Assembly (NCBI RefSeq): GCF_004210375.1
Contig: NC_134832.1
Coordinates: 150,037,592-150,101,591 of the forward strand
DNA length: 64,000 nucleotides
Source: Tachypleus tridentatus
Taxonomy: Eukaryota; Arthropoda; Merostomata; Xiphosura; Limulidae
Direction of reading: 5' to 3'
Both the position numbers and the translations under genes were made by a program. Of the stretch, positions 36,833 to 62,203 are shown piece by piece. Numbering within the stretch: the stretch's first letter is position 1; the number at the start of each line of letters is the position of its first letter. A model generated the notes under the pieces. It ran no database searches and was not told the DNA's origin. It saw only the letters and a list, made by a program, of their open reading frames with translations.

Positions 36833-37800
36833 AGAGGAAGAATATTATTTATAATTAAAACAGAGGACGAATATTGTCTCTAATTAAAACAGGAGAAGAA
36901 TATTATATGTAATTAAAACAGAAGAAGAATATTATATCTAATTAAAACATGGAAGAATATTATATCTAATTAAAACATGGAAGAATATTACATCTGATTA
37001 AAACATGGAAGAATATTATATCTAATTAAAACATGGAAGAATATTATATCTGATTAAAACATGGAAGAATATTATATGTAATTAAAACAGAAGAAGAATA
37101 TTATATCTAATTAAAACATGGAAGAATATTACATCTGATTAAAAACATGGAAGAATATTATATCTAATTAAAACATGGAAGAATATTATATCTGATTAAA
37201 ACATGGAAGAATATTATATGTAATTAAAACAGAAGAAGAATATTATATCTAATTAAAACATGGAAGAATATTATATCTAATTAAAACATGGAAAAATATT
37301 ATATGTAATTAAAACAGAAGAAGAATATTATATCTAATTAAAACATGGAAGAATATTATATGTAATTAAAACAGGGAAGAATATTATCTCTAATTAAAAC
37401 AGAAGAATAATATTATATCTAATTAAAACATGGTAGAATATTATATCTAATTAAAACAAGGAAAATATTATATCTAATTAAAACAGGGAAGAATATTATC
37501 TCTAATTAAAACAGGGGACGAATATTATATTTAAGTGAACAGGAGAAGGATACTATATGTAATTAAACAGGAGATTGATATTATATCTAATTACAACAGG
37601 AGATTGCTATTATATTTGATTAAAACAGATGATGAATATCATCTCTAATTAAAACAGGCGAAGAATATTATATCTAATTAACATAGAGGACGAATATTAT
37701 CTCTAATTACAACAGGGAAGAATATTATATGTAATTAAAACAGGGAAAGAAAATTATTTCTAATTAAAACAGGAGAAGGATATTATATATTAAACAGGAA
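36833..37800. repeat. AT-rich minisatellite, 28 bp x ~34
   Basis: Unit GAAGAATATTATATCT plus AATTAAAACATG (28 bp), repeated with small length changes. The middle (36930-37480) is most regular; both ends are diverged (GGACGAATATT, GGAGATTGATATT variants). Non-coding. It lies ~3.3 kb left of the last visible receptor exon. Confidence 0.92.
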
Positions 37801-38603: not shown

Positions 38604-39103
38604 NNNNNNNNNNNNNNNNNNNNNNNNNNNNNNNNNNNNNNNNNNNNNNNNNNNNNNNNNNNNNNNNNNNNNNNNNNNNNNNNNNNNNNNNNNNNNNNNN
38701 NNNNNNNNNNNNNNNNNNNNNNNNNNNNNNNNNNNNNNNNNNNNNNNNNNNNNNNNNNNNNNNNNNNNNNNNNNNNNNNNNNNNNNNNNNNNNNNNNNNN
38801 NNNNNNNNNNNNNNNNNNNNNNNNNNNNNNNNNNNNNNNNNNNNNNNNNNNNNNNNNNNNNNNNNNNNNNNNNNNNNNNNNNNNNNNNNNNNNNNNNNNN
38901 NNNNNNNNNNNNNNNNNNNNNNNNNNNNNNNNNNNNNNNNNNNNNNNNNNNNNNNNNNNNNNNNNNNNNNNNNNNNNNNNNNNNNNNNNNNNNNNNNNNN
39001 NNNNNNNNNNNNNNNNNNNNNNNNNNNNNNNNNNNNNNNNNNNNNNNNNNNNNNNNNNNNNNNNNNNNNNNNNNNNNNNNNNNNNNNNNNNNNNNNNNNN
39101 NNN
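38604..39103. other. Assembly gap (500 N)
   Basis: Exactly 500 undetermined bases. The round number suggests a fixed-size scaffolding placeholder rather than a measured gap, so the true missing length is unknown. Open frames that run through it are artefacts. Confidence 0.99.
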
Positions 39104-41147: not shown

Positions 41148-41307
41148 CTTGTAGTAGGAATGCACCAAATATTGTCCAACACGACTTGGATGTCATCTGA
41201 GAGACAGATACTTGGCTGTTTCTTGGGTCGACTGATGCAATAATGTGATTCAAGGCCGTGTAGGCAAGAGCGCTGAAGACGAGACTAACCAGAATAGCCA
41301 CCCATAC
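41148..41307 (-). CDS. Ionotropic glutamate receptor-like exon: M1 and pore loop
   Basis: A 160-nt exon (53 codons plus 1 nt) on the minus strand, with acceptor TTTTGTAG at 41308-41309 and donor CAAG/GTGAAAA at 41147. It encodes membrane segment M1 (VWVAILVSLVFSALAYTAL), an extramembrane linker, and the re-entrant pore loop KSCWTIFGAFLLQG, matching the W-x-x-x-GA-F-x-x-Q-G pattern of iGluR/IR channels. Aligned with GluA2, the Q/R-site residue is leucine. The previous exon (43492-43650) ends in phase 0 and joins as ...LGLFTSE + VWVAILV..., as expected for the family. The following M3 exon is not found. It is one internal part of a cation-channel receptor at the cell membrane; ligand unknown. 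Confidence 0.9.
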
Positions 41308-41578
41308 CTACAAAAGAACGTAACAATTCTAAGATTGTGGTATTTTTAGATAGCAGTGATTTCTCCTATAAGTAACGAGATGGGTCCGCTTAAAAAGGAA
41401 CATATGTCAAGATATTTACTATTAAATAAATTTATATTTTCTAATTAATTGAGCTTGCGAGAAGTAAAGACAGACTGAATGCATTTGTACATTTACAATA
41501 TACAATGATTACTTAAATAAACACTGAAAATTAATTTTCTTTGCGAGGATAACTATTATTTTTTGCTTAGAAAAGACA

Positions 41579-41642
41579 AGAATTGAACCCGGATTTTAAT
41601 ATTTTACATCTGTGTACTCATCTCTGACCCACCAGGGGACTG
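41579..41642 (-). mobile_element. SINE family B fragment
   Basis: AATTGAACCCGGATTTTAA ... ACATCTGTGTACTCATCTCT ... CCACCAGGGG is a diverged reverse complement of the family B head. It lies in the intron between the two leftmost receptor exons. Confidence 0.45.
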
Positions 41643-41869
41643 CTACAGTGGACTACATAATTAGTTTATAGATCTACATATCACCGATTAACAGTAATAA
41701 TGCATGAATAATTAGTTTTTAAGACTTCCATATTACTGATTAACAACAATAAAGCATAAATCATTAGCTGTATATATATTAAGATAATAGTTGTGCTAAT
41801 CATACTATAATGAACTCTTGCTTGAATGATACTGGAAAAAAGTTCTTATTATACCACTTGTAACTCTTA

Positions 41870-42423
41870 ACTTTGTGAAATTTGTATGCAGTATGTATGT
41901 AGATTTGCAATAGGGGCTACGATTTTCCTTTTACGTCTCCATTTCCCGTGACGAAGAACTTTATTTTTCTCCATTCTCAGGGTGCATGTATGACGTAATG
42001 AATACGGCATACTTGGATCTAATGCGCTTGCGCCATCTATATCAATATAATAGTACTGTTTGTTGTATATCCATGTAAATACTACGCAGGGTGTGGATGG
42101 ATCTTCACCAAACTTGGTATGGAGGCTCCACAGGTACATGGGAAAATGCACACAAATTTTCAGTTTTGCATTTTGAGGTGTTTTTTTTACCACAACTTCG
42201 CCCTGTTGATGCATCTTCACCTAATTTGGTATGAAGGTTTGTTGAATCTATGAGAAGATATATGCAAATGTAAGGTTTCACATTTTGTGTTTTGCTGTTT
42301 TTATGGGCGTTTTGGGCTTTTTCAAAAATGATATATAAAGGAAACAAGTTTTCATCCTAAGATAAGCTTTCATTAATCATGAATTTACATAACTTCCGAC
42401 CAGGGTACGGATACCCCAGCTAG
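41870..42423 (+). mobile_element. Possible non-autonomous Helitron
   Basis: The right end reads CCAGGGTACGGATACCCCAG followed by CTAG (42420-42423) and T. It contains a GGGTA-loop-TACCC hairpin just before a CTAG terminus, the signature of a Helitron 3' end. Inside are two diverged copies of a segment (ATCTTCACCAAACTTGGTATG at 42100, ATCTTCACCTAATTTGGTATG at 42206). The 5' TC end is not defined. The 117-codon minus-strand frame at 41867-42220 is a by-product of the repeat, not a gene. It sits inside a receptor intron. Confidence 0.5.
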
Positions 42424-42875
42424 TAGGTATAAGTCATATTCATGACACAAATATTACATGTACTATTAAACAAGAAAATCATAACTGTTGTATTAGAAAG
42501 CTTTAATGACAACTGAAATTGATTAAAATAGTTAACTTTTGAAACAGCTGATCTACCTTATCTGAAGGCCTATAGACCTAAACCTTTTTAAAAACCAGAT
42601 GTCGATATTGTGTGGGGTACATCACATATATCTCATTTTGAAGCCTTTTGCTTAACAGCAAGGCAAACGAACAAACAAATATTCCGAAGTGTGAGGCTGG
42701 TAACTCAATATTTTTTCTTAATGACATCAGTTGAATGGTAATAACCCAAACCAGCGTTTCAATGACCACATTTTAAAAGTGATTCCAGTTTTGTATTTTT
42801 TATTTTTATTGTTATCAAAACTAGAGTGTGAATGTATACGTCACCCGAAAACATTAATTATACATACTGTGATAC

Positions 42876-43154
42876 TTGTTTGTTTGTTTCGAATTTCGCG
42901 CAAAGCTACCCGAGCGCTACCTGCGCTAGCCGTCCCTAATTTTGTAGTCTAAGGCTAGAGGGAAGGTAGCTAGTCATCACCACACACTGCCAACTCTTGG
43001 GCTACTCTTTTACTAACGAATAGTGGGAATGACCGAAACATTATAACGCCCCCACCGCTGAAAGGGCGAACATGTTTGATGCGATCGGGATTCGAACCTG
43101 TGACCCTCAGATTACGAGTCGAACGCCTTAACTCACCTGTACATATCGGGCCAG
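42876..43154 (-). mobile_element. SINE family A with a 9-bp target-site duplication
   Basis: Reverse-oriented full-length copy. CTGTGATAC occurs at 42867-42875 and 43155-43163. It lies in the receptor intron between exons 43492-43650 and 41148-41307, in the sense orientation of that gene. Confidence 0.92.
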
Positions 43155-43214
43155 CTGTGATACAATAGCATAAAGAAATACATGAATGAATATTTTATTC
43201 AAGTATAGTAGATC

Positions 43215-43480
43215 AGTGTGGCAAAAATCCCAAGACGGCTAAAATGCATATGAAATCCTCTTGTGTCAAAATATGCATATACAAATCCCTGGATAGTGAA
43301 ATATACATATGAAAATCATCACGTGTCAAAATGTTCCGATAAAAATACCCATGTATCGAAATGTGCGTATAAGAATCCAAGAATATTGAAATATGCATAC
43401 GAAAATCTTAGCATATCGAAACGTGCATGTGTCAAACAGTTTCGATAAAAACACCCATGTAACGAAATGTGCATGTATAA
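43215..43480. repeat. Decayed minisatellite, ~30 bp x 9, abutting a splice donor
   Basis: Units resemble CATGTATCGAAATGTGCGTA, with AAAATAC or AGAATCC spacers (43215-43480), and are strongly diverged. The array ends about 12 nt from the donor of exon 43492-43650, so it forms the 5' start of that intron. Its open frames are by-products. Confidence 0.75.
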
Positions 43481-43491
43481 TTCCTCCTTAC

Positions 43492-43650
43492 CTCCGAGGT
43501 GAAGAGCCCCAATATTACCCCAGCATCGACAGAGGAGTACGGAGCACGAGTTATGAAAGTCAGCGAACTCACGTGGAATATGTGAGTAAAATCAATGGCC
43601 TTTTCTCTGTCTTCGGTCCATTCCAGAGGTCCAATGGCCAAATCTTTTTC
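43492..43650 (-). CDS. Ionotropic glutamate receptor-like exon: ligand-binding S1 core
   Basis: A 159-nt exon (53 codons, phase 0 at both ends), acceptor ATTTTATAG before 43650 and donor GAG/GTAAGG after 43492. It encodes EKDLAIGPLEWTEDREKAID followed by FTHIF, the hallmark DxAxxPLxxTxxRxxxxDF segment of iGluR/IR ligand-binding domains, then the lead into M1. The arginine that contacts the ligand carboxylate in glutamate receptors (R485 of GluA2) is kept (TEDREKAIDF). The nearby threonine (T480 of GluA2) is replaced by glutamate (PLE for PLT). This suggests an amino-acid-related but probably non-glutamate ligand, as in many IRs. It joins the preceding exon (…MVGELNRK) and the next exon in phase. 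Confidence 0.94.
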
Positions 43651-43672
43651 CTATAAAATATAAAGGAGTTCG

Positions 43673-45432
43673 CAGCTGGTAAATATCCAACGCTAGATAC
43701 ATGTATACTAATCAGGGGTGTGAATCAACTGGTAAATATGCAAGTTTTAGACACATGCATACTAATCAGGGATGTGAATCAACTGGTAAATATGCAAGTT
43801 TTAGACACATGCATACTAATCAGGGGTGTGAATCAACTGGTAAATATGCAAGTTTTAGACACATGCATACTAATCAGGGGTGTGAATCAACTGGTAAATA
43901 TGAAAGTCCTAGATACATGTATACTAATCAGAGGTGTGAATCAACTTGTAAATATGAAAGTCCTAGATACATATATACTAATCAGAGATGTGAATCAACT
44001 GGTAAATATCAAAGTCCAAGATACATGTATACTAATCAGAGGTGAGAATCAACTGGTAAATATGAAAGTCCTAGATACATGTATACTAATCAGAGGTGAG
44101 AATCAACTGGTAAATATGAAAGTCCTAGATACATATATACTAATAAGGAGTGTGAATCAACTGGTAAATATGAAAGTCCTAGATACATATATACTAATCA
44201 GGAGTGTGAATCAACTGGTAAATATGCAAGTCCTAGATACATGTATACTAATCAGAGGTGTGAATCAACTGGTAAATATGAAAGTCCTAGATACATGTAC
44301 ACTAATCAGAGGTGTGAATCAACTGGTAAATATGAAAGTCCTAGATACATGTATACTAATCAGGAGTGTGAATCAACTGGTAAATATGCAAGTTATATAC
44401 TAATCAGGAGTGTGAATCAACTGGTAAATATGCAAGTCCTAGATACATATATACTAATCAGGAGTGTGAATCAACTGGTAAACATGAAAGTCCTAGATAC
44501 ATGTATACTAATCAGGAGTGTGAATCAACTGGTAAATATGAAAGTCCTAGATACATATATACTAATCAGAGGTGTGAATCAACTGGTAAATATGAAAGTC
44601 CTAGATACATATATACTAATCAGAGGTGTGAATCAACTGGTAAATATGATAGTCCTAGATACATGTACACTAATCAGGAGTGTGAATCAACTGGTAAATA
44701 TGCAAGTCCTAGATACATGTATACTAATCAGGAGTGTGAATCAACTGGTAAATATGAAAGTGCTAGATACATATATACTAATCAGGAGTGTGAATCAACT
44801 TGTAAATATGAAAGTCCTAGATACAAGTATACTAATCAGAGGTGTGAATCAACTGGTAAATATGAAAGTCCTAGATACATGTATACTAATCAGAGGTGTG
44901 AATCAACTTGTAAATATGTAAGTCCTAGATACATGTATACTAATCAGGAGTGTGAATCAACTGGTAAATATGATAGTCCTAGATACATGTACACTAATCA
45001 GGAGTGTGAATCAACTGGTAAATATGAAAGTCCTAGATACATGTATACTAATCAGAGGTGTGAATCAACTGGTAAATATGAAAGTCCTAGATACATGTAT
45101 ACTAATCAGAGGTGTGAATCAACTGGTAAATATGAAAGTCCTAGATACAAGTATACTAATCAGAGGTGTGAATCAACTGGTAAATATGAAAGTCCTAGAT
45201 ACATGTATACTAATCAGAGGTGTGAATCAACTGGTAAATATGAAAGTCCTAGATACATGTATATTAATCAGAGGTGTGAATCAACTGGTAAATATGAAAG
45301 TCCTAGATACATGTATACTAATCAGAGGTGTGAATCAACTGGTAAATATGAAAGTCCGAGATACATGTATACTAATCAGAGGTGTGAATGAACTGGTAAA
45401 TATGAAAGTCCTAGATACATGTATACTAATTG
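43673..45432. repeat. Satellite array, 54 bp x ~32 (array 1)
   Basis: Unit contains CCTAGATACATGTATACTAA, TCAGAGGTGTGAATCAACTG and GTAAATATGAAAGT; the 54-bp period was confirmed from TGAATC at 43721 and 43775. As 54 is 18 codons, two plus-strand frames stay open for hundreds of codons (e.g. 43720-44403 and 44501-45391). They are perfectly periodic and show no start context or domain, so I do not call a protein. The array begins about 20 nt intronic of the acceptor of exon 43492-43650. Confidence 0.96.
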
Positions 45433-45585
45433 TATACAAACAAATTGTAACGTGCGAAGGTGGTCGTGAACACTGCACACACAGATACGGATGCTGGTTT
45501 ACGTGCTTTTTAGTGAAATCGGGAATTTAATTATGATAACGTTTTTGTTTTTTCTAATTGCCGTCTTTGGTTTAAGACTAGAAGG

Positions 45586-45815
45586 GTTTGTTTTTTAATT
45601 TCGCGTAAAGCTACACGCGGGCTATATGTGTTAGCCGTCCCTAATTTTACAGTGTAAGACTAGAAGGGAAGGCAGCTAGTCGTCATCACCCATCGCCATC
45701 TTTTGATATATTCTTTTACCTACAAATAGTGGGATTGACCGAACATTATCACGCCACCACACCTTAAAGGGTAAGAATGTTTCGTGTGACAGGGATTCGA
45801 ACCCGCCCGTCCTTA
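45586..45815 (-). mobile_element. SINE family A, head-truncated
   Basis: Reverse-oriented body (AATTTCGCGTAAAGCTACAC ... GACAGGGATTCGAACCCG) ending before the start of the tRNA-like head. In the receptor intron, beside array 1. Confidence 0.82.
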
Positions 45816-45827
45816 TGTTACAGGACT

Positions 45828-45882
45828 AATAGTCAAGAGTTGACGGTGGATGTTGTTAACTAGTTGTGCTTCATTTAGCTTA
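45828..45882 (+). mobile_element. SINE family A fragment in opposite orientation
   Basis: AGTCAAGAGTTGACGGTGG ... TAACTAGTTGTGCTTCATTT resembles the CAAGAGTTGGCGGTGGGTGG ... GACTAGCTGCCTTCC part of family A. It directly follows the reverse-oriented copy, giving a head-to-head arrangement. Confidence 0.5.
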
Positions 45883-46179
45883 TCATTTCAAAATAATGCA
45901 TGGTTAGGGAGACTATACGAAACCAAATCAACCCATTTTGGCTTCGAATTAGATCATTTATCTGATTCGCAACTTACGTGATCTGTTTAATTTTGGGATC
46001 TACATTAACATAATTGTGTTACGGACTTACATGTTTCAATGTTGAATATTTCAACGTTGAATGTTAGTTTTATATCTTACAGTTTTAAATATTACCATAT
46101 TGAATGTTAGTGTTGCATGTTGGCTTCAAATGAAAATTTCTTACTGAACTACAGACTGCCTCAAACCTGTGCAGTACGA

Positions 46180-46800
46180 AGTAGTTACGTCACAAAGGTT
46201 GTAATTAGTGGTATATTGTGAACGAAACTTACGTTACAAAGATTATAACTAGTGGTATGTTGTGAACGAAACTTACGTTATAAAAATTGTAACTAGTGGT
46301 ATATTGTCAACGAAACTTCTGTTGCAAAGGTTGTAATTAGTGGTATATTGTCAACGAAACTTCTGTTGCAAAGGTTGTAATTAGTGGTATATTGTCAACG
46401 AAACTTATGTTACAAAGGTTGTAATTAGTGGTATATTGTGAATGAAACTTACGTTATAAAGATTGTAACTAGTGGTATATTGTAAATGAAACTTACGTTA
46501 TAAAGATTGTAACTAGTGGTATATTGTCAACGAAACTTATGTTACAAAGATTGTAACTAGTGGTATATTGTCAACGAAACTTCTGTTGCAAAGGTTGTAA
46601 TTAGTGGTATATTGTCAACGAAACTTATGTTACAAAGGTTGTAATTAGTGGTATATTGTCAACGAAACTTATGTTACAAAGGTTGTAATTAGTGGTATAT
46701 TGTCAACGAAACTTCTGTTGCAAAGGTTGTAATTAGTGGTATATTGTCAACGAAACTTCTGTTGCAAAGGTTGTAATTAGTGGTATATTGTCAATGAAAC
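46180..46800. repeat. Minisatellite, 44 bp x ~14
   Basis: Unit contains GGTTGTAATTAGTGGTATAT and TGTCAACGAAACTTCTGTTG; the 44-bp period was measured from 46207 to 46251. Two alternating subtypes (CTTCTGTTGCAAAGG and CTTATGTTACAAAGG) form short runs. In the receptor intron. Non-coding. Confidence 0.93.
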
Positions 46801-46949
46801 TAATTCTTAACCCATTTTAATAAATAAGATGTTGTTTCGTGTGGCAGGTGAATAATTATGACATTATTTTCAGGAGTTCTCTTACCCTTAAGTATCCTAC
46901 AGAACAAAGACTTAATAAACTCCTCCCCCGTAAAAAAAGAAAAAAAAAC

Positions 46950-47185
46950 TATTTTGATTGCTTATTTCAGATATTTGCACAAAGATACACAAGGGCTATC
47001 TGCGCTGTTTGTGATAATCATGACAAAAAAGGATACAGTTAACCAAAAATATCCACCGCCATCTCTTGGGTTATTCTTATAACACACCAAAGAACCCAAG
47101 GTTTGGAGCTCGATGTTGCTTTAATGGGACACAAGCAACAGATTCACAGTACAGCACGGTAGCCACTAGGTCACGCATGGCGCGA
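46950..47185 (-). mobile_element. Probable decayed SINE
   Basis: The left part (TATTTGCACAAAGATACACA, AGGGCTATCTGCGCTG) matches the reverse complement of the family A 3' end; the right part (GCACGGTAGCCACTAGGTCA) looks like a different tRNA-like head. It may be a diverged relative of family A or a composite. Confidence 0.45.
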
Positions 47186-47194
47186 GAAAGAAGA

Positions 47195-48183
47195 GGTAAA
47201 GGTTAAACCTTCTGTTGTCTATAAATAATGATTACTTAAGCCTCATATGGATTATGTTTAACCTTCTGTTGTCTATAAATAATGATTACTTAAGCCTCAT
47301 ATGGATTATATTTAACCTTCTGTTGTCTATAAATAATGATTACTTAAGCCTCATATGGATTATGTTTAACCTTCTGTTGTCTATAAATAATGATTACTTA
47401 AGCCTCATATGGATTATGTTTAACCTTCTGTTGTCTATAAATAATGATTAATTAAGCCTCATATGGATTATGTTTAACCTTCTGTTGTCTATAAATAATG
47501 ATTACTTAAGCCTCATGTGGATTATGTTTAACCTTCTGTTGTCTATAAATAATGATTACTTAAGCCTCATATGGATTATGTTTAACTTTCTGTTGTCTAT
47601 AAATAATGATTACTTAAGCCTCATATGGATTATGTTTAACTTTCTGTTGTCTATAAATAATGATTACTTAAGCCTCATATGGATTATGTTTAACTTTCTG
47701 TTGTCTATAAATAATGATTACTTAAGCCTCATATGGATTATGTTTAACTTTCTGTTGTCTATAAATAATGATTACTTAAGCCTCATATGGATTATGTTTA
47801 ACCTTCTGTTGTCTATAAATGGTGATTACTTAAGCCTCATGTGGATTATGTTTAACCTTCTGTTGTCTATAAATTATGTTTAACCTTCTGTTGTCTATAA
47901 ATTATGTTTAACCTTCTGTTGTCTATAAATAATGATTACTTAAGCCTCATATGGATTATGTTTAACCTTCTGTTGTCTATAAATAATGATTACTTAAGCC
48001 TCATATGGATGATGTTTAACCTTCTGTTGTCTATAAATGATGATTGCTTAAGCCTCATATGGATTATTTTTAACCTTCTGTTGTCTATAAATAATGATTA
48101 CTTAAGCCTCATCTGGATTATGTTTAACTTCTTTCTGTTATCTATAAATAATGATTACTTAAGCCTGATATGGATTATTGTGG
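47195..48183. repeat. Satellite array, 54 bp x ~18 (array 2)
   Basis: Unit contains TATAAATAATGATTACTTAA, GCCTCATATGGATTATGTTT and AACCTTCTGTTGTC; the 54-bp period was measured from 47220 to 47274. No similarity to array 1 despite the same period. Plus-strand frames stay open (e.g. 47470-47883) because 54 is a multiple of 3. They are not considered genes. Two shortened units lie near 47870-47910. The array ends about 40 nt before the donor of exon 48223, i.e. it starts that intron. Confidence 0.96.
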
Positions 48184-48222
48184 GACTGTCATTTTTATGA
48201 CAGCATGAAACAAACTCTGTAC

Positions 48223-48310
48223 CTTTCTGTTTAACTCTCCAACCATTCCTGTCCAGTTGCCGTTTTCCAAGCTTCCAAATGCCCAGTCTGATCGTTGTGT
48301 CACGTGCGGT
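48223..48310 (-). CDS. Ionotropic glutamate receptor-like exon: start of ligand-binding domain
   Basis: The minus-strand exon ends at a GTACAG donor (48222 downwards) and encodes TQRSDWAFGSLENGNWTGMV, then GELNRK. This matches the W-G...NG-W-x-GMVGEL signature in iGluR/IR ligand-binding domains. It joins 43492-43650 in phase 0 (…GELNRK + EKDLAIG…). Two acceptors are possible. GCTTCGTAG gives 48310 as the first base and fits the phase of the upstream exon at 61602-61669. ATTTTAG gives 48330 as first base and adds FGCVLRR, which looks family-like but does not keep the preferred frame of the upstream exon. I list the first, with the second as an alternative. Confidence 0.85.
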
Positions 48311-48330
48311 CTACGAAGCACACAACCAAA

Positions 48331-48890
48331 CTAAAATAAGAATTGTTAGTCGCAAAAGACAGCTCACACTTCATTATGTTAATTAGTACCACGCTGGTAC
48401 GAATATGCTTAGAGATGGATAGAATTCTACTATCAGTAAATGACTGGATAACCATGTGTTTGTTGTGCACATGCGCGTATTAAAAATTATTAAATGCCTT
48501 TCAAAATAAACTGGACATTCGTGTAGTATGGTCTCGCAATATTTCAAGGTGATATGATGCTAAATACGTTTCACACTTAGCTGAACACTTGTATGTGCAA
48601 AATACATCATTTTAACACTAATGACACTTAAAAGTATTATTTATTTTGCAATTAAGGCTACCCACGAAGACAGGACATTCTGGAAACACGAACAGAAGGT
48701 TTTCTCTGTCACACATTTACAGAATTCCTAAGGATAAAATACACATATGAGGAGGGTTTAAAAGAACACAAAAACACAGGTGTTTTATTCCAGTTGCCGC
48801 ATACTTTAAAAATAAATTCTCTGATCTTGTGGTTTATTAATTAGTTTTAGTATTTTAAATCGAAACAACAACAAACAGATATACACAGGA
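48331..48890. other. Receptor intron, unique part
   Basis: AT-rich sequence between the exon at 48223-48310/48330 and the 47-bp satellite. No other feature seen. Confidence 0.4.
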
Positions 48891-51800
48891 TATATAGCTA
48901 TAGTTATAGTATGTTTATATATTAAACATGATACTACACTACAGCTATAGTTATAGTATGTTTATATATTAAACATGATACTACACTACAGCTATAGTTA
49001 TAGTATGTTTATATATTAAACATGATACTACACTACAGCTATAGTTATAGTATCTTTATATATTAAACATGATACTACACTACAGCTATAGTTATAGTAC
49101 GTTTATATATTAAACATGATACTACACTACAGCTATAGTTATAGTATGTTTATATATTAAACATTATGTATACTACAGCTATAGTTATAGTATGTTTATA
49201 TATTAAACATGATACTACACTACAGCTATAGTTATAGTATGTTTATATATTAAATACAATGTTACACTACAGCTATAGTTATAGTATGTTTATATATTAA
49301 ACATGATACTACACTACAGCTATAGTTATAGTATGTTTATATATTAAATACAATGTTACACTACAGCTATAGTTATAGTATGTTTATATATTAAACATGA
49401 TGCTACACCACAGCTATAGTTATAGTATGTTTATATATTAAACATGATGCTACACCACAGCTATAGTTATAGTATGTTTATATATTAAACACAATGTTAC
49501 ACCACAGCTATAGTTATAGTATGTTTATATATTAAACATGATACTACACTACAGCTATAGTTATAGTATGTTTATATATTAAACATGATGCTACACCACA
49601 GCTATAGTTATGGTATGTTTATATATTAAACATGATGCTACACCACAGCTATAGTTATAGTATGTTTATATATTAAACACAATGTTACACTACAGCTATA
49701 GTTATAGTATGTTTATATATTAAACACAATGTTACACTACAGCTATGGTTATAGTATGTTTATATATTAAACATGATACTACACCACAGCTATAGTTATA
49801 ATATGTTTATATATTAAACATGATACTACACTACAGCTATAGTTATAGTATGTTTATGTATTAAACATGATGCTACACCACAGCTATAGTTATAATATGT
49901 TTATATATTAAACATGATGCTACACCACAGCTATAGTTATAGTATGTTTATATATTAAACATGATACTACACTATAGCTATAGTTATAGTATGTTTATAT
50001 ATTAAACACAATGTTACCCTACAGCTATAGTTATAGTATGTTTATATTAAACACAATGTTACACTACAGCTATAGTTATAGTATGTTTATATATTAAACA
50101 TGATACTACACCACAGCTATAGTTATAGTATGTTTATATATTAAACATGATACTACACTACAGCTATAGTTATAGTATGTTTATATATTAAACATGATGC
50201 TACACCACAGCTATAGTTATAGTATGTTTATATATTAAACATGATGCTACACCACAGCTATAGTTATAGTATGTTTATATATTAAACATGATACTACACT
50301 ACAGCTATAGTTATAGTATGTTTATATATTAAATATGATACTACACTACAGCTATAGTTATAGTATGTTTATATATTAAACATGATACTACACCACAGCT
50401 ATAGTTATAGTATGTTTATATATTAAATATGATACTACACTACAGCTATAGTTATAGTATGTTTATATATTAAACATGATACTACACCACAGCTATAGTT
50501 ATAGTATGTTTATATATTAAATATGATACTACACTACAGCTATAGTTATAGTATGTTTATATATTAAAGATGATACTACACTACAGCTATAGTTATAGTA
50601 TGTTTATATATTAAACATGATACAACACCACAGCTATAGTTATAGTATGTTTATATATTAAATATGATACTACACTACAGCTATAGTTATAGTATGATTA
50701 TATATTAAACATGATACTACACTACAGCTATAGTTATAGTATGTTTATATATTAAATATGATACTACACTACAGCTATAGTTATAGTATGTTTATATATT
50801 AAACATGATACTACACCACAGCTATAGTTATAGTATGTTTATATATTAAATATGATACTACACTACAGCTATAGTTATAGTATGTTTATATATTAAAGAT
50901 GATACTACACTACAGCTATAGTTATAGTATGTTTATATATTAAACATGATACTACACTACAGCTATAGTTATAGTATGTTTATATATTAAATACAATGTT
51001 ACACTACAGCTATAGTATGTTTATATATTAAACATGATGCTACACCACAGCTATAGTTATAGTATGTTTATATATTAAACATGATGCTACACCACAGCTA
51101 TAGTTATAGTATGTTTATATATTAAACACAATGTTACACCACAGCTATAGTTATAGTATGTTTATATATTAAACATGATACTACACTACAGCTATAGTTA
51201 TAGTATGTTTATATATTAAACATGATGCTACACCACAGCTATAGTTATGGTATGTTTATATATTAAACATGATGCTACACCACAGCTATAGTTATAGTAT
51301 GTTTATATATTAAACACAATGTTACACTACAGCTATAGTTATAGTATGTTTATATATTAAACACAATGTTACACTACAGCTATAGTTATAGTATGTTTAT
51401 ATATTAAAGATGATACTACACCACAGCTATAGTTGTAATATGTTTATATATTAAACATGATACTACACTACAGCTATAGTTATAGTATGTTTATATATTA
51501 AACATGATGCTACACCACAGCTATAGTTATAGTATGTTTATATATTAAACATGATGCTACACCACAGCTATAGTTATAGTATGTTTATATATTAAACATG
51601 ATACTACACTATAGCTATAGTTATAGTATGTTTATATATTAAACATGATACTACACTACAGCTATAGTTATAGTATGTTTATATTAAACACAATGTTACA
51701 CTACAGCTATAGTTATAGTATGTTTATATATTAAACATGATACTACACTACAGCTATAGTTATAGTATGTTTATATTAAACACAATGTTACACTACAGCT

Positions 51801-54800
51801 ATAGTTATAGTATGTTTATATTAAACACAATGTTACACTACAGCTATAGTTATAGTATGTTTATATATTAAACATGATACTACACCACAGCTATAGTTAT
51901 AGTATGTTTATATATTAAACATGATACTACACTACAGCTATAGTTATAGTATGTTTATATATTAAACATGATGCTACACCACAGCTATAGTTATAGTATG
52001 TTTATATATTAAACATGATACTACACTACAGCTATAGTTATAGTATGTTTATATATTAAACATCATACTACACTACAGCTATAGTTATAGTATGTTTATA
52101 TATTAAACATGACACTACACCACAGCTATAGTTATAGTATGTTTATATATTAAACATGACGCTACACTACAGCTATAGTTATAGTATGTTTATATATTAA
52201 ACATGACGCTACACTACAGCTATAGTTATAGTATGTTTATATATTAAACATGATACTACACCCACAGCTATAGTTATAGTATGTTTTATATGTTAAACAT
52301 GATGCTACAACCACAGCTATAGTTATGGTATGTTTATATATTAAACATGATGCTACACTACAGCTATAGTTATAGTATGTTTATATATTAAATATGATGC
52401 TACACTACAGCTATAGTTATAGTATGTTTATATATTAAACATGATACTACACCACAGCTATAGTTATAGTATGTTTATATATTAAATATGATACTACACT
52501 ACAGCTATAGTTATAGTATGTTTATATATTAAACATGATACTACACCACAGCTATAGTTATAGTATGTTTATATATTAAATATGATACTACACCACAGCT
52601 ATAGTTATAGTATGTTTATATATTAAACATGATACTACACTACAGCTATAGTTATAGTATGTTTATATATTAAACATGATACAACACCACAGCCACATGG
52701 TTATGGTATGTTTATATATTAAATATGATACTACACTACAGCTATAGTTATAGTATGTTTATATATTAAACATGATACTACACTACAGCTATGGTTATAG
52801 TATGTTTATATATTAAACATGATACTACACCACAGCTATTGTTATAGTATGTTTATATGTTAAACATGATAGTACACTACAGCTATAGTTATAGTATGTT
52901 TATATATTAAACATGATACTACACCACAGCTATAGTTATAGTATCTTTATATATTAAACATGATACTACACCACAGCTATAGTTATAGTATGTTTATATA
53001 TTAAACATGATACTACACCACAGCTATAGTTATAGTATGTTTATATATTAAACATGATACTACACTACAGCTATAGTTATAGTATGTTTATATATTAAAC
53101 ATGATACTACACCACAGCTATAGTTATAGTATGTTTATATATTAAATATGATACTACACTACAGCTATAGTTATAGTATGTTTATATATTAAACATGATA
53201 CTACACCACAGCTATAGTTATAGTATGTTTATATATTAAATATGATACTACACTACAGCTATAGTTATAGTATGTTTATATATTAAAGATGATACTACAC
53301 TACAGCTATAGTTATAGTATGTTTATATATTAAACATGATACAACACCACAGCTATAGTTATAGTATGTTTATATATTAAATATGATACTACACTACAGC
53401 TATAGTTATAGTATGTTTATATATTAAACATGATACTACACTACAGCTATGGTTATAGTATGTTTATATATTAAACATGATACTACACCACAGCTATAGT
53501 TATAGTATGTTTGTATATTAAACATGATACTACACCACAGCTATAGTTATAGTATGTTTATATATTAAACATGATGCTACACTATAGCTATAGTTATAGT
53601 ATGTTTGTATATTAAACATGATACTACACTACAGCTATAGTTATAGTATGTTTGTATATTAAACATGATACTACACCACAGCTATAGTTATAGTATGTTT
53701 ATATATTAAACATGATGCTACACTACAGCTATAGTTATAGTATGTTTGTATATTAAACATGATACTACACCACAGCTATAGTTATAGTATGTTTATATAT
53801 TAAACATGATGCTACACTATAGCTATAGTTATAGTATGTTTGTATATTAAACATGATACTACACTACAGCTATAGTTATAGTATGTTTGTATATTAAAAC
53901 ATGATACTACTACCACAGCTATAGTTATGGTATGTTTATATATTAAACATGATGCTACACTACAGCTATAGTTATAGTATGTTTATATATGAAACATGAT
54001 GCTACACTACAGCTATAGTTATAGTATGTTTATATATTAAACATGATGCTACACTACAGCTATATTTATAGTATGTTTATATATTAAACATGATACTACA
54101 CTACAGCTATAGTTATAGTATGTTTATGTATTAAACATGGTGTTACACCATAGCTATAGTTATAGTATGTTTATATATTAAACATGATGCTACACTACAG
54201 CTATAGTTATAGTATGTTTATATATTAAACATGATGCTACACTACAGGTATTGTTATAGTATGTTTATATATTAAACATGATGCTACACTACAGCTATAG
54301 TTATAGTATGTTTATATATTAAACATGATACTACACTACAGGTATAGTTATAGTATGTTTATATATTAAACATGATACTACACCACAGCTATAGTTATAG
54401 TATGTTTATATATTAAACATGATACTACGCTACAGCTATAGTTATAGTATGTTTATATATTAAACATGATACTACAACACAGCTATAGTCATAGTATGTT
54501 TATATATTAAACATGATACTACACCACAGCTATAGTTATAGTATGTTTATATATTAAACATGATTCTACACTACAGCTATAGTTATAGTGTGTTTATATA
54601 TTAAACATGATGCTACACTACAGCTATAGTTATAGTATGTTTATATATTAAACATGATGCTACACTACAGCTATAGTTATAGTATGTTTATATATTAAAC
54701 ATGATGCTACACTACAGCTATAGTTATAGTATGTTTATATATTAAACATGATACTACACTACAGCTATAGTTATAGTATGTTTATATATTAAACATGATG

Positions 54801-57800
54801 CTACACCACAGCTATAGTTATGGTATGTTTATATATTAAACATGATGCTACACCACAGCTATAGTTATAGTATGTTTATATATTAAACACAATGTTACAC
54901 TACAGCTATAGTTATAGTATGTTTATATATTAAACACAATGTTACACTACAGCTATAGTTATAGTATGTTTATATATTAAACATGATACTACACCACAGC
55001 TATAGTTGTAATATGTTTATATATTAAACATGATACTACACTACAGCTATAGTTATAGTATGTTTATATATTAAACATGATGCTACACCACAGCTATAGT
55101 TATAGTATGTTTATATATTAAACATGATGCTACACCACAGCTATAGTTATAGTATGTTTATATATTAAACATGATACTACACTATAGCTATAGTTATAGT
55201 ATGTTTATATATTAAACATGATACTACACTACAGCTATAGTTATAGTATGTTTATATTAAACACAATGTTACACTACAGCTATAGTTATAGTATGTTTAT
55301 ATATTAAACATGATACTACACTACAGCTATAGTTATAGTATGTTTATATTAAACACAATGTTACACTACAGCTATAGTTATAGTATGTTTATATTAAACA
55401 CAATGTTACACTACAGCTATAGTTATAGTATGTTTATATATTAAACATGATACTACACCACAGCTATAGTTATAGTATGTTTATATATTAAACATGATAC
55501 TACACTACAGCTATAGTTATAGTATGTTTATATATTAAACATGATGCTACACCACAGCTATAGTTATAGTATGTTTATATATTAAACATGATACTACACT
55601 ACAGCTATAGTTATAGTATGTTTATATATTAAACATGATACTACACTACAGCTATAGTTATAGTATGTTTATATATTAAACATGACACTACACCACAGCT
55701 ATAGTTATGGTATGTTTATATATTAAACATGACTACACTACAGCTATAGTTATAGTATGTTTATATATTAAACATGACGCTACACTACAGCTATAGTTAT
55801 AGTATGTTTATATATTAAACATGATACTACACCACAGCTATAGTTATAGTATGTTTATATGTTAAACATGATGCTACACCACAGCTATAGTTATAGTATG
55901 TTTATATATTAAACATGATACTACACTACAGCTATAGTTATAGTATGTTTATATATTAAACATGATACTACACTACAGCTATAGTTATAGTATGTTTATA
56001 TATTAAATATGATACTACACTACAGCTATAGTTATAGTATGTTTATATATTAAACATGATACTACACCACAGCTATAGTTATAGTATGTTTATATATTAA
56101 ATATGATACTACACTACAGCTATAGTTATAGTATGTTTATATATTAAACATGATACTACACCACAGCTATAGTTATAGTATGTTTATATATTAAATATGA
56201 TACTACACTACAGCTATAGTTATAGTATGTTTATATATTAAACATGATACTACACTACAGCTATAGTTATAGTATGTTTATATATTAAACATGATACAAC
56301 ACCACAGCCATAGTTATAGTATGTTTATGTATTAAATATGATACTACACTACAGCTATAGTTATAGTATGTTTATATATTAAACATGATGCTACACTACA
56401 GCTATGGTTATAGTATGTTTATATATTAAACATGATACTACACCACAGCTATTGTTATAGTATGTTTATATATTAAACATGATAGTACACTACAGCTATA
56501 GTTATAGTATGTTTATATATTAAACATGATACTACACCACAGCTATAGTTATAGTATGTTTATATATTAAACATGATACTACACCACAGCTATAGTTATA
56601 GTATGTTTATATATTAAACATGATACTACACCACAGCTATAGTTATAGTATGTTTATATATTAAACATGATACTACACTACAGCTATAGTTATAGTATGT
56701 TTATATATTAAACATGATACTACACCACAGCTATAGTTATAGTATGTTTATATATTAAATATGATACTACACTACAGCTATAGTTATAGTATGTTTATAT
56801 ATTAAACATGATACTACACCACAGCTATAGTTATAGTATGTTTATATATTAAATATGATACTACACTACAGCTATAGTTATAGTATGTTTATATATTAAA
56901 GATGATACTACACTACAGCTATAGTTATAGTATGTTTATATATTAAACATGATACAACACCACAGCTATAGTTATAGTATGTTTATATATTAAATATGAT
57001 ACTACACTACAGCTATAGTTATAGTATGTTTATATATTAAACATGATACTACACTACAGCTATGGTTATAGTATGTTTATATATTAAACATGATACTACA
57101 CTACAGCTATGGTTATAGTATGTTTATATATTAAACATGATACTACACCACAGCTATAGTTATAGTATGTTTATATATTAAACATGATACTACACTACAG
57201 CTATAGTTATAGTATGTTTATATATTAAACATGATACTACACCACAGCTATAATTATAGTATGTTTATATATTAAACATGATACTACACCATAGCTGTAG
57301 TTATAGTATGTTTATATATTAAACATGATGCTACACTACAGCTATAGTTATAGTATGTTTATATATGAAACATGATGCTACACTACAGCTATAGTTATAG
57401 TATGTTTATATATTAAACATGATGCTACACTACAGCTATAGTTATAGTATGTTTATATATTAAACATGATACTACACTACAGATATAGTTATAGTATGTT
57501 TATGTATTAAACATGGTGTTACACCATAGCTATAGTTATAGTATGTTTATATATTAAACATGATGCTACACTACAGCTATAGTTATAGTATGTTTATATA
57601 TTAAACATGATGCTACACTACAGGTATTGTTATAGTATGTTTATATATTAAACATGATGCTACACTACAGCTATAGTTATAGTATGTTTATATATTAAAC
57701 ATGATACTACACTACAGCTATAGTTATAGTATGTTTATATATTAAACATGACACTACACCACAGCTATAGTTATAGTATGTTTATATATTAAACATGACG

Positions 57801-60800
57801 CTACACTACAGCTATAGTTATAGTATGTTTATATATTAAACATGATACTACACCACAGCTATAGTTATAGTATGTTTATATGTTAAACATGATGCTACAC
57901 ACCACAGCTATAGTTATGGTATGTTTATATATTAAACATGATACTACACTACAGCTATAGTTATAGTATGTTTATATATTAAACATGATACTACACTACA
58001 GCTATAGTTATAGTATGTTTATATATTAAACATGACGCTACACTACAGCTATAGTTATAGTATGTTTATATATTAAACATGACGCTACACTACAGCTATA
58101 GTTATAGTATGTTTATATATTAAACATGATACTACACCACAGCTATAGTTATAGTATGTTTATATGTTAAACATGATGCTACACCACAGCTATAGTTATA
58201 GTATGTTTATATATTAAACATGATACTACACTACAGCTATAGTTATAGTATGTTTATATATTAAATATGATACTACACTACAGCTATAGTTATAGTATGT
58301 TTATATATTAAACATGATACTACACCACAGCTATAGTTATAGTATGTTTATATATTAAATATGATACTACACTACAGCTATAGTTATAGTATGTTTATAT
58401 ATTAAACATGATACTACACCACAGCTATAGTTATAGTATGTTTATATATTAAATATGATACTACACTACAGCTATAGTTATAGTATGTTTATATATTAAA
58501 CATGATACTACACTACAGCTATAGTTATAGTATGTTTATATATTAAACATGATACAACACCACAGCCATAGTTATAGTATGTTTATATATTAAATATGAT
58601 ACTACACTACAGCTATAGTTATAGTATGTTTATATATTAAACATGATACTACACTACAGCTATGGTTATAGTATGTTTATATATTAAACATGATACTACA
58701 CCACAGCTATTGTTATAGTATGTTTATATATTAAACATGATAGTACACTACAGCTATAGTTATAGTATGTTTATATATTAAACATGATACTACACCACAG
58801 CTATAGTTATAGTATGTTTATATATTAAACATGATACTACACCACAGCTATAGTTATAGTATGTTTATATATTAAACATGATACTACACCACAGCTATAG
58901 TTATAGTATGTTTATATATTAAACATGATACTACACTACAGCTATAGTTATAGTATGTTTATATATTAAACATGATACTACACCACAGCTATAGTTATAG
59001 TATGTTTATATATTAAATATGATACTACACTACAGCTATAGTTATAGTATGTTTATATATTAAACATGATACTACACCACAGCTATAGTTATAGTATGTT
59101 TATATATTAAATATGATACTACACTACAGCTATAGTTATAGTATGTTTATATATTAAAGATGATACTACACTACAGCTATAGTTATAGTATGTTTATATA
59201 TTAAACATGATACAACACCACAGCTATAGTTATAGTATGTTTATATATTAAATATGATACTACACTACAGCTATAGTTATAGTATGTTTATATATTAAAC
59301 ATGATACTACACTACAGCTATGGTTATAGTATGTTTATATATTAAACATGATACTACACCACAGCTATAGTTATAGTATGTTTATATATTAAACATGATA
59401 CTACACTACAGCTATAGTTATAGTATGTTTATATATTAAACATGATACTACACCACAGCTATAATTATAGTATGTTTATATATTAAACATGATACTACAC
59501 CATAGCTGTAGTTATAGTATGTTTATATATTAAACATGATACTACACTACAGCTATAGTTATAGTATGTTTATATATTAAACATGATGCTACACTACAGC
59601 TATAGTTATAGTATGTTTATATATTAAACATGATACTACACCACAGCTATAGTTATAGTATGTTTATATATTAAACATGATGCTACACTACAGCTATAGT
59701 TATAGTATGTTTGTATATTAAACATGATACTACACCACAGCTATAGTTATAGTATGTTTATATATTAAACATGATGCTACACTATAGCTATAGTTATAGT
59801 ATGTTTGTATATTAAACATGATACTACACTACAGCTATAGTTATAGTATGTTTGTATATTAAACATGATACTACACCACAGCTATAGTTATAGTATGTTT
59901 ATATATTAAACATGATGCTACACTACAGCTATAGTTATAGTATGTTTATATATTAAACATGATGCTACACTACAGCTATAGTTATAGTATGTTTATATAT
60001 TAAACATGATGCTACACTACAGCTATAGTTATAGTATGTTTATATATTAAACATGATACTACACTACAGATATAGTTATAGTATGTTTATGTATTAAACA
60101 TGGTGTTACACCATAGCTATAGTTATAGTATGTTTATATATTAAACATGATGCTACACTACAGCTATAGTTATAGTATGTTTATATATTAAACATGATGC
60201 TACACTACAGGTATTGTTATAGTATGTTTATATATTAAACATGATGCTACACTACAGCTATAGTTATAGTATGTTTATATATTAAACATGATACTACACT
60301 ACAGGTATAGTTATAGTATGTTTATATATTAAACATGATACTACACCACAGCTATAGTTATAGTATGTTTATATATTAAACATGATACTACACTACAGCT
60401 ATAGTTATAGTATGTTTATATATTAAACATGATACTACAACACAGCTATAGTCATAGTATGTTTATATATTAAACATGATACTACACCACAGCTATAGTT
60501 ATAGTATGTTTATATATTAAACATGATTCTACACTACAGCTATAGTTATAGTGTGTTTATATATTAAACATGATGCTACACTACAGCTATAGTTATAGTA
60601 TGTTTATATATTAAACATGATGCTACACTACAGCTATAGTTATAGTATGTTTATATATTAAACATGATGCTACACTACAGCTATAGTTATAGTATGTTTA
60701 TATATTAAACATGATACTACAATACAGCTATAGTTATAGTATGTTTATATATTAAACATGATACTACACCACAGCTATAGTTATAGTATGTTTATATATT

Positions 60801-61594
60801 AAACATGATACTACACCACAGCTATAGTTATAGTATGTTTATATATTAACCATGATACTACACCACAGCTATAGTTATAGTATGTTTATATATTAAACAT
60901 GATACTACACCACAGCTATAGTTATAGTATGTTTATATATTAAACATGATACTACACCACAGCTATAGTTATAGTATGTTTATATATTAAACATGATGCT
61001 ACACTACAGCTATAGTTATAGTATGTTTATATATTAAACATGATGCTACACTACAGCTATAGTTATAGTATGTTTATATATTAAACATGATGCTACACTA
61101 CAGCTATAGTTATAGTATGTTTATATATTAAACATGATGCTACACTACAGCTATAGTTATAGTATGTTTATATATTAAACATGATACTACACTACAGCTA
61201 TAGTTATAGTATGTTTATATATTAAACATGATACTACACTACAGCTATAGTTATAGTATGTTTATATATTAAACATGATACTACACCACAGCTACAGTTA
61301 TAGTATGTTTATATATTAAACATGATACTACACTACAGCTATAGTTATAGTATGTTTATATATTAAACATGATACTACACCACAGCTACAGTTATAGTAT
61401 GTTTATATATTAAACATGATGTTACACTACAGCTATAGTTATAGTACGTTTATATATTAAACATGACGCTACACTACAGCTATAGTTATAGTATGTTTAT
61501 ATATTAAACATGATGTTACACTACAGCTATAGTTATAGTACGTTTATATATTAAACATGATGTTACACTACAATTATAGTTATAGTATGTTTAT
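48891..61594. repeat. Large intronic satellite, 47 bp x ~270
   Basis: Unit contains ACAGCTATAGTTATAGTATG, TTTATATATTAAACATGATA and CTACACT; the 47-bp period was measured from 48941 to 48988. The array runs 12.7 kb without interruption by any SINE. Monomer variants (CATGATGCTACACC, CACAATGTTACACT, TATGATACTACACT, GATGATACTACACT, and a 2-bp-shorter TTTATATTAAACAC form) recur in the same order at long range, showing higher-order duplication (see findings). It fills nearly all of one receptor intron and reaches within a few nt of its splice donor. Non-coding. Confidence 0.98.
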
Positions 61595-61601
61595 TGTTTA
61601 C

Positions 61602-61669
61602 CTTAAATTGGTTCTGTTGGTAATTTCTTCTAACAGCTGAAAGAACTTGTCGTACTTGCCGTTTCGATA
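61602..61669 (-). CDS. Ionotropic glutamate receptor-like exon: N-terminal part of ligand-binding domain (probable)
   Basis: A 68-nt minus-strand exon with acceptor TTTTTTTCTTGATAG and donor TTTAAG/GTAAAC. In the frame starting at its first base it encodes YRNGKYDKFFQLLEEITNRT then NL, like the D-LL-x-E-L-x-x-x-x-N-F helix at the beginning of iGluR/IR S1. It starts in phase 0, as exon 62114-62203 requires, and ends 2 nt into a codon. The alternative frame is also open (RQVLSAVRRNYQ) and would fit the longer form of the next exon, so the exact frame needs transcript evidence. Confidence 0.65.
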
Positions 61670-62113
61670 CTATCAAGAAAAAAACAGTTCTCATGAAAAC
61701 TTTCACGAACGTTTCTTTCCGGCTGTAATAAAAAGATGACAAAACTGTTTACGACTAAAACAAAGATAACATTTTATCGTGAGGAGAAGAAAAAGAAAAA
61801 TATGTGTTTATTGTATAATTTAATCAGTGGTACAGAGATACAGCTTTTGAGTGGGTCGTTTATTTTTATATTTTGTTGAACTTAATTTCAGCGTTTCGAC
61901 CACTCGTGACCATCAGTAACTGTTGTCTATTGTGTGAAATAATAGGTGAGCATTTCATTTTTATTCAATGAGTTTTGATTTAAGTTAGATTTTAGTTCAA
62001 AATAATTAATGTTTTTCTTCCATTTGTGATTTTTGTGTTGAATAATATTTTAAAGTTGTAAGTTTTATATGAATATTGGTTTATTATACACGTTATTTCA
62101 TCTAAATACTTAC
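61670..62113. other. Short receptor intron (444 nt), no array
   Basis: If both flanking exons are real, this is a 444-nt intron without satellite DNA, unlike the three introns to its left. No other feature. Confidence 0.4.
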
Positions 62114-62203
62114 GTTGCGTCCCGTTTCGCCTATTTCCATGCTATGGGATTGATACTTGTAGATACTTCCATCATCGAAGTTATCACCATAACGTTTCGT
62201 TAG
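62114..62203 (-). CDS. Candidate upstream exon of the receptor gene
   Basis: A 90-nt minus-strand open segment (30 codons) from an AAAGTTCAG acceptor to a strong donor, CGCAAC/GTAAGTATTT. It encodes LTKRYGDNFDDGSIYKYQSH, then SMEIGETGRN, and ends in phase 0, matching the exon at 61602-61669. I do not recognise a specific domain. Its position suits the stretch just before the ligand-binding core or the end of an amino-terminal domain. Only the frame used is free of stops. The call rests on splice sites and phase rather than homology. Confidence 0.45.

What the first reader, a model, noticed from the sequence alone, without database searches (positions are those of the whole stretch)
41148..62203. 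Successive introns of one receptor gene begin with different tandem arrays right at the splice donor
The gene is read on the minus strand. After exon 61602-61669, the 47-bp array starts about 3-6 nt beyond the GTAAAC donor. After exon 48223-48310, 54-bp array 2 starts ~40 nt in. After exon 43492-43650, a ~30-bp array starts ~12 nt in. 54-bp array 1 also ends ~20 nt from an acceptor. The arrays are unrelated in sequence, so this is not one satellite spreading. Seen directly: the positions. Inference: tandem amplification may be seeded at, or tolerated right up to, intron ends in this gene, and the first monomer of each array may derive from the intron's own 5' end.
Basis: partly seen in the sequence, partly recalled or inferred. 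Interest (0 to 1): 0.75.

Follow-up and report, generated by a model that had tools for sequence, protein, structure and literature searches.

The report
Tandem repeats crowding a receptor gene's introns
Several introns of a horseshoe crab receptor gene are packed with unrelated short repeats that run almost to the splice sites, which is best read as a repeat-prone neighbourhood tolerated by splicing, although elsewhere in the same genome a repeat array really has copied an exon end together with its splice site many times.

Summary
The positions are right. Five exons of an ionotropic glutamate receptor gene check out; arrays start 7, 44 and about 12 nt after three donors, and one ends about 22 nt before an acceptor. 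Both assembly copies of the locus (probably alleles) keep the same edges, though the 47-bp array has 270 units in one and 44 in the other. "Unrelated monomers" and "tolerated right up to intron ends" hold. "Seeded at donors" is not supported: around 44 donors and 40 acceptors of related genes in this genome, array coverage falls towards both splice sites, more at acceptors. A within-intron test gives a borderline twofold donor excess (P=0.04, uncorrected). Repeats carrying a donor word are no commoner, array by array on one scaffold, than repeats carrying the reversed word, although single matches are. Array load is a property of the gene (P<0.0002) and rises towards scaffold ends. No window array shows a significant copy of its exon end. 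Elsewhere it happens: at L058 a 74-bp unit holds the last 26 coding nt plus the donor; the exact exon-donor 22-mer occurs 16 extra times. Ordinary intronic minisatellites, with one striking splice-site array as a by-product.

The parts
62114..62203 (-). iGluR exon, first of the five seen (90 nt), donor GTAAGT
   Evidence: GT-AG, phase and open frame across exons
61602..61669 (-). second exon (68 nt), donor GTAAAC
   Evidence: identical in the second copy
48896..61594 (.). 47-bp array, 270.5 copies, 95.5% of its intron; starts 7 nt after the donor; 44.5 copies in the second copy with the same edges
48223..48310 (-). third exon (88 nt), ends ...GMVGELNRK, donor GTACAG
47202..48178 (.). 54-bp array 2, 18.0 copies, starts 44 nt after the donor (16.0 copies in the second copy)
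46185..46801 (.). 44-bp array, 14.0 copies, middle of the same intron (12.0 in the second copy)
43693..45430 (.). 54-bp array 1, 32.4 copies; decayed edge reaches about 22 nt from the acceptor (29.4 copies in the second copy)
43492..43650 (-). fourth exon (159 nt), EKDLAIGPLEWTEDREKAIDFTH..., donor GTAAGG
43232..43480 (.). degenerate 30-bp array starting about 12 nt after the donor
   Evidence: lag-30 self-match; TRF core 43244-43332
41657..41767 (.). 52-bp unit x 2.2 in the same intron as the 30-bp array
41148..41307 (-). fifth exon (160 nt), M1-pore region ending FGAFLLQ
38604..39103 (.). 500-N assembly gap at which the near-identical second copy stops matching; the gene's 3' part is not seen in the window

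Best explanation
These are ordinary intronic minisatellites in a locus where tandem duplication is frequent. Short stretches of intron are duplicated in tandem and then grow and shrink by unequal exchange or slippage, each intron amplifying its own sequence. Selection sets where they may lie: exons and, usually, roughly the last 200 nt before an acceptor are kept clear, but a donor needs only a few intron bases, so an array may begin directly behind it. If a duplication happens to straddle a donor, splicing at the first donor still gives the same protein, so such arrays can also persist (L058). Several introns of one gene are affected because array load is a property of the locus, higher towards scaffold ends, not because donors seed repeats. 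Shown: positions, exons as open and conserved reading frames, unrelated monomers, conserved edges with variable copy number between the two copies, gene-level clustering, fewer arrays near acceptors, donor-containing monomers elsewhere. Inferred: allelic status of the second copy, the duplication mechanism, use of the first donor, scaffold ends as chromosome ends.
For:: anatomy and unrelated monomers; the second copy at C8:148.09-148.12 Mb keeps both edges of the 47-bp array but has 44.5 instead of 270.5 units; the 54 (2), 44 and 54 (1)-bp arrays have 16.0, 12.0 and 29.4 units against 18.0, 14.0 and 32.4; array coverage by distance from 44 donors .055.077.135.148 out to 200 nt, then .19-.20; from 40 acceptors .025 to .051 out to 200 nt, then .14-.20; 2 of 39 acceptor flanks have an array within 200 nt against 5.59 expected, P=0.017; 70 flanks in 23 genes, between-gene variance reached in 0 of 5000 permutations; rank correlation of gene load with distance to scaffold end -0.51 (23 genes, permutation P=0.008), -0.47 (18 regions, P=0.02). 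L058.
Against: In this gene the three donor gaps are smaller than random placement gives (combined P=0.0012, post hoc). In the other genes there is a borderline donor excess within 60 and 100 nt (4 of 40 against 1.59 and 5 of 40 against 2.47, P=0.037 and 0.040), though not within 30 (2 against 0.70, P=0.15) or 200 nt (5 against 3.64, P=0.24). The exon end finds its best match in its own intron in 4 of 44 donors, 1.0 expected, and in 2 of 40 acceptors, 1.0 expected. Donor-word triples exceed reversed-word triples when single matches rather than arrays are counted: 3154 to 1264 and 2260 to 941 at 38-54 bp spacing. One window array reaches 22 nt from an acceptor, inside the zone that is usually clear. 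The difference between donors and acceptors in edges within 200 nt (9 of 44 against 3 of 40) is not significant (P=0.12). The sample is one gene family.
Confidence: 0.75

Rival explanations
1. Donor seeding: tandem duplication starts preferentially at the exon-intron junction, so the first monomer is exon end plus intron start, and introns grow from their 5' ends; older arrays lose the resemblance because the exon cannot change with them.
For: L058 (74 bp, 20 further units in the 1.5 kb held) and L048 (32 bp, about 8 units) straddle donors; L019 and L063 carry one exon-end copy 29 and 54 nt into the intron. The exon end ranks first in its own intron in 4 of 44 donors, 1.0 expected. Borderline excess within 60 and 100 nt, and this gene's three donor gaps. 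Match-level donor-word excess of about 2.4-2.5, against 1.13 for single words.
Against: No significant exon-end or donor copy in the window's arrays. Tandem copies straddle donors in 3 of 44 cases at score 26 or more, against 6 to 10 at each of the eight intronic offsets tested (n 44, or 41 at +1000 nt). Arrays with the donor 8-mer on scaffold C1: 13 against 16 for the reversed word, or 13 against 13 when merged over 50 kb; 10-mer 200 against 190 matches. The acceptor equivalent exists too (L013).
Confidence: 0.13
2. One mobile satellite or transposon-derived repeat spread into successive introns.
For: Arrays lie in several introns of one gene.
Against: The monomers are unrelated. A DNA search with three units of the 47-bp array listed only the second copy of this locus (that search skips common words and did not list the window's own array, so it is a lower bound).
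Confidence: 0.02
3. Assembly artefact: the arrays, or their lengths, are produced by misassembly.
For: The locus exists twice on one scaffold, inverted, with the block edge at a 500-N gap; the 47-bp array length differs sixfold.
Against: Both copies hold all the arrays, and both edges of the 47-bp array are the same in each; arrays of this kind are common in other genes. Exact copy numbers may still be wrong.
Confidence: 0.05
4. The arrays are kept near donors for a function, such as splicing regulation of the receptor or intron length.
For: Position near donors in three introns; edges conserved between the copies.
Against: 10 of 23 related genes have no array in any flank held; copy number varies sixfold between the copies; the monomers share no sequence.
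Confidence: 0.04

Closest known systems
Subtelomeric minisatellites (VNTRs) such as human HRAS1, CEB1, CEB25
   Same: Units of tens of bp, copy number differing between copies of the locus, load higher towards scaffold ends. PMC3486850: only the title and start of the abstract seen in a search listing, which calls these human subtelomeric minisatellites GC-rich arrays
   Different: Here AT-rich units, very dense inside introns of particular genes; allelic polymorphism and recombination origin not tested
[quoted passage not shown]
   Same: The L058 monomer carries a 5' splice site, so one exon is followed by many donors
   Different: Only the title was seen, in the reference lists of PMC2572611 and PMC2915984; the paper is not held. 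The L058 unit is 74 bp and includes 26 coding nt; use of the extra donors is unknown; the window's own arrays show no significant donor copy
[quoted passage not shown]
   Same: A tandem duplication of sequence holding splice signals can leave the protein unchanged
   Different: No new intron arises here; an existing intron gains a duplicated exon end and donor

Membership tests
Minisatellite / VNTR | Head-to-tail units of about 10-100 bp | tested here: met
   TRF: 47, 54, 54, 44 and 30-bp units
Minisatellite / VNTR | Copy number varies between alleles | tested here: inconclusive
   270.5 against 44.5 units between two copies in the assembly; allelism inferred from the N-gap edge
Donor-carrying minisatellite (Turri 1995 type) | Monomer contains a 5' splice site derived from the adjacent exon junction | tested here: not met
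   Window arrays: junction versus unit P 0.98 (47 bp) and 0.46 (54 bp array 2); last 40 nt of each exon versus the next intron P 0.73, 0.98, 0.087, 0.25, 0.30. Met at L058 and L048, which are outside the window
Donor-carrying minisatellite (Turri 1995 type) | Transcripts use several of the donors | not testable with these tools
   No RNA data
Tandem-duplication intron gain (Rogers model) | A new intron is created | tested here: not met
   For one of the introns concerned: the intron after ...GELNRK is at a position shared with other kainate-type genes of the genome (read). The other introns were not compared
Ionotropic glutamate receptor | Lig_chan-Glu_bd domain and M1-pore segment | tested here: met
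   PF10613 1.3e-15; FGAFLLQ exon read; an M3-type exon with Lig_chan match in the second copy at C8:148132686-148132868
Horseshoe crab genome | Coagulogen gene (recalled as specific to horseshoe crabs) | tested here: met
   PF02035 exons covering model positions 1-70 and 75-174 at C11:9016804-9022066

The most novel reading that the evidence does not exclude
In horseshoe crabs tandem duplication is preferentially initiated at the exon-donor junction, so introns lengthen from their 5' ends through arrays whose first monomer is the exon end plus donor; L058, with twenty donor copies behind one exon, would be a young example and the window's arrays old, decayed ones.
Probability: 0.13. Interest if true: 0.75.

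Novelty: new member of a known kind. Interest (0 to 1): 0.4.

Why it matters
It shows how close an expanding repeat can come to a splice site before selection stops it: about 7 nt at a donor here, and usually about 200 nt at an acceptor in this sample. The L058 exon is followed by 20 units carrying its own end and donor (the 26 coding nt exact in 14, one mismatch in 3, diverged in 3), 11 of them with a higher matrix score than the real donor: a natural test of how the spliceosome keeps to the first donor. The gene-level clustering and the rise towards scaffold ends make the question of regional duplication rate directly testable in a horseshoe crab.

Tried and rejected
Spread of one satellite: rejected on unrelated monomers. 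First monomer from the exon end in the window's arrays: tested by local alignment with shuffles. Last 40 nt of the five exons against the next intron gave P 0.73, 0.98, 0.087, 0.25, 0.30; first 40 nt of four exons against the previous intron gave 0.31, 0.05, 0.75, 0.42; junction against unit gave 0.98 and 0.46. The weak match of exon 48223-48310 to array 2 (P 0.087, then 0.46) was dropped. Raw first-edge rates near donors (0.8-1.0 per kb within 200 nt against 0.24-0.30 beyond) were set aside because introns differ strongly in array load, which alone makes such rates fall with distance; the within-flank test replaced them. That test left out 4 of 44 donor and 1 of 40 acceptor flanks that were too short or nearly filled with arrays. 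Match-level enrichment of donor triples (3154 to 1264; 2260 to 941) was not trusted because a few large arrays hold many matches; array-level counting on C1 gave 13 against 16, the 10-mer 200 against 190. The scaffold-end test on pattern hits (16 of 44 within 12 Mb against 6.1 expected) rests on the donor-word lists (7 of 17 and 5 of 8); the control-word list alone shows nothing (4 of 19 against 2.6, P=0.25), and some duplicate pairs remain. Gene means and places were typed. Of the 60 loci, L018, L035, L053 and L064 got no splice sites, and L037, L063, L065 and L071 only donors; 56 donors and 52 acceptors were assigned by hand from codon patterns, and 12 of each were dropped as near-identical second copies. 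Some related paralogues remain (for example L022 and L041). A first donor assignment for L044 and L047 was wrong and mended. The Pfam ANF_receptor search did not complete and not repeated, so upstream exons were not mapped.
Full report
WHAT IS THERE. The window is C8:150037592-150101591 of a 2.17-Gb genome in 205 contigs, some of them chromosome-sized scaffolds. It is a horseshoe crab: the coagulin family, which I recall as specific to them, matches in exons that cover model positions 1-70 and 75-174 of 174 at C11:9.017-9.022 Mb. On the minus strand lies an ionotropic glutamate receptor gene. Its five exons (62114-62203, 61602-61669, 48223-48310, 43492-43650, 41148-41307) have GT-AG borders and matching phases and join into one open frame. 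The spliced ligand-binding part matches Pfam PF10613 at 1.3e-15, and its best PDB match is kainate receptor 4 at 2.2e-10. At 38604-39103 there is a 500-N gap. The Lig_chan search, which scored 150 of 249 candidates, lists an M3-type exon for a second copy of the gene and none for the window.

THE SECOND COPY. The block from the base after the gap to beyond the right edge of the window recurs inverted at C8:148.09-148.122 Mb, as far as I fetched. The large aligned pieces are 93.7-98.4% identical. The five exons differ at 1 of 565 nt. Because the shared block ends exactly at the gap, I take the copies to be two alleles left in the assembly; this is inference. Both copies hold all the arrays. The 47-bp array has 270.5 units in the window and 44.5 in the other copy, with the same bases at both edges.

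THE ARRAYS. Arrays begin 7, 44 and about 12 nt behind three donors, and one ends about 22 nt before an acceptor. By TRF, arrays fill 95.5% of the largest intron, 73% of the next and 9% of the third; the first short intron (444 nt) has none. The 47, 54, 54, 44 and 30-bp monomers are unrelated, with one of ten pairs at P=0.045. If each intron's own arrays are placed at random, the three donor gaps have P=0.012, 0.103 and 0.013 (combined 0.0012) and the acceptor gaps 0.988, 0.052 and 0.345 (combined 0.23). These introns were picked for the pattern, so the figure overstates the case. No array shows a significant copy of the exon end before it.

A CONTROL SET FROM THE SAME GENOME. Two family searches gave 150 and 107 exon matches, of which the 30 best of each were fetched with 1.5 kb on each side. 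I assigned donors and acceptors by hand from conserved codon patterns and kept 44 donors and 40 acceptors after dropping near-identical second copies. Tandem arrays are common there too. Coverage next to donors is 0.055 at 0-30 nt, 0.077 at 30-60, 0.135 at 60-100, 0.148 at 100-200 and 0.19-0.20 beyond. Next to acceptors it is 0.025-0.051 out to 200 nt and 0.14-0.20 beyond. Comparing each donor with points deeper in the same intron, an array lies within 30 nt in 2 of 40 flanks against 0.70 expected (P=0.15), within 60 nt in 4 against 1.59 (P=0.037), within 100 nt in 5 against 2.47 (P=0.040), within 200 nt in 5 against 3.64 (P=0.24). For acceptors within 200 nt it is 2 of 39 against 5.59, a deficit with P=0.017; at 30, 60 and 100 nt it is 1, 1 and 2 against 0.97, 1.85 and 3.06. 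The two sides differ in the expected direction, but 9 of 44 donors against 3 of 40 acceptors with an edge within 200 nt is not significant (P=0.12). An exon's last 40 nt match their own intron better than all other introns in 4 of 44 donors (1.0 expected), and the first 40 nt in 2 of 40 acceptors (1.0 expected).

GENOME PATTERNS. Three successive copies of the donor word AGGTAAGT at 24-54 bp spacing occur 3154 times, against 1264 for the word read backwards; single words occur 92449 and 81715 times. At 38-54 bp spacing the triples are 2260 and 941. Matches pile up in large arrays, so I compared arrays on scaffold C1 with spacing about 38-54 bp: 13 with the donor word and 16 with the reversed word, or 13 and 13 when merged over 50 kb. 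A 10-base donor word gave 200 against 190 matches. There is no array-level sign that donors are preferred seeds, but the C1 count is small and could not exclude a mild effect.

WHY ONE GENE. Array load is a property of the gene. In 70 non-overlapping flanks of 23 genes (grouped by place, 40 kb), between-gene variance was never reached in 5000 permutations; 10 of the 23 have no array in any flank held, while the gene at C3:115.15 Mb has coverage of 0.48-1.0 in all six. Load falls with distance from the scaffold end (rank correlation -0.51, permutation P=0.008; -0.47, P=0.02 when neighbouring genes are pooled into 18 regions). In a heavily loaded gene, arrays near several donors are expected.

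WHERE A MONOMER REALLY IS THE EXON END. At L058 (C5:2.677 Mb, a kainate-type gene) a 74-bp array starts 26 nt inside the exon. In the 1.5 kb held, 20 further units follow the real donor. The last 26 coding nt are exact in 14, have one mismatch in 3 and are diverged in 3 (the two nearest and one other). By a simple matrix 11 of the 20 donors score higher than the real one (6.5 against 5.2), 5 the same, 1 at 4.8 and 3 at 1.9. The exact 22-mer across the junction occurs 17 times in the genome, all within C5:2677324-2678973. The exon's frame meets a stop 54 nt after the donor, within the first unit, so any decoy use would truncate the protein. L048 shows the same with decayed 32-bp units; L019 and L063 have a single exon-end copy; L013 has an acceptor with exon start in a unit repeated 2.9 times. 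Straddling a donor is therefore possible, but rarer (3 of 44) than tandem copies inside introns (6 to 10 at each of eight offsets).

CONCLUSION. The best reading is frequent tandem duplication in certain loci plus selection by splicing: little room is needed behind a donor, more in front of an acceptor. Seeding at donors remains possible but unproven. Precedents are known: a human minisatellite that provides several splice donors (title seen in reference lists) and intron gain by tandem duplication (passages of PMC4974935). Paper searches on the combination (two found nothing) and on horseshoe crab repeats listed no title or abstract start that describes this case. I read passages of one of the horseshoe crab papers only: the Tachypleus tridentatus genome paper gives repeats as 34.83% and does not contain the word satellite.

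Noticed in passing
L058 (C5:2675631-2678882) and C5:2677324-2678973: A coding exon end with its splice donor repeated about twenty times in the following intron, 11 of 20 copies with a higher donor score than the real one.
   Followed up: yes
L013, acceptor at locus position 1345: A 40-bp unit repeated 2.9 times contains the acceptor and the first exon bases: the mirror case at a 3' splice site.
   Followed up: partly
window 38604-39103 and C8:148.09-148.12 Mb: Near-identical inverted second copy whose edge coincides with a 500-N gap; many other receptor exons also occur as close pairs on one scaffold, which suggests unpurged alleles in the assembly.
   Followed up: partly
23 receptor genes of the genome sample: Intronic array load differs sharply between genes and rises towards scaffold ends.
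   Followed up: partly
L045, donor at 1711 (oriented to the match): The S1 exon seems to end with a GC donor (GAAAAG then GCTAGT) where relatives have GT.
   Followed up: no
window 10288-11985 and 36832-37788: Further large arrays (98 bp x 17; 28 bp x 33) outside the five exons; their consensus units share a weak similarity (P=0.005, one of 21 pairs tested).
   Followed up: no
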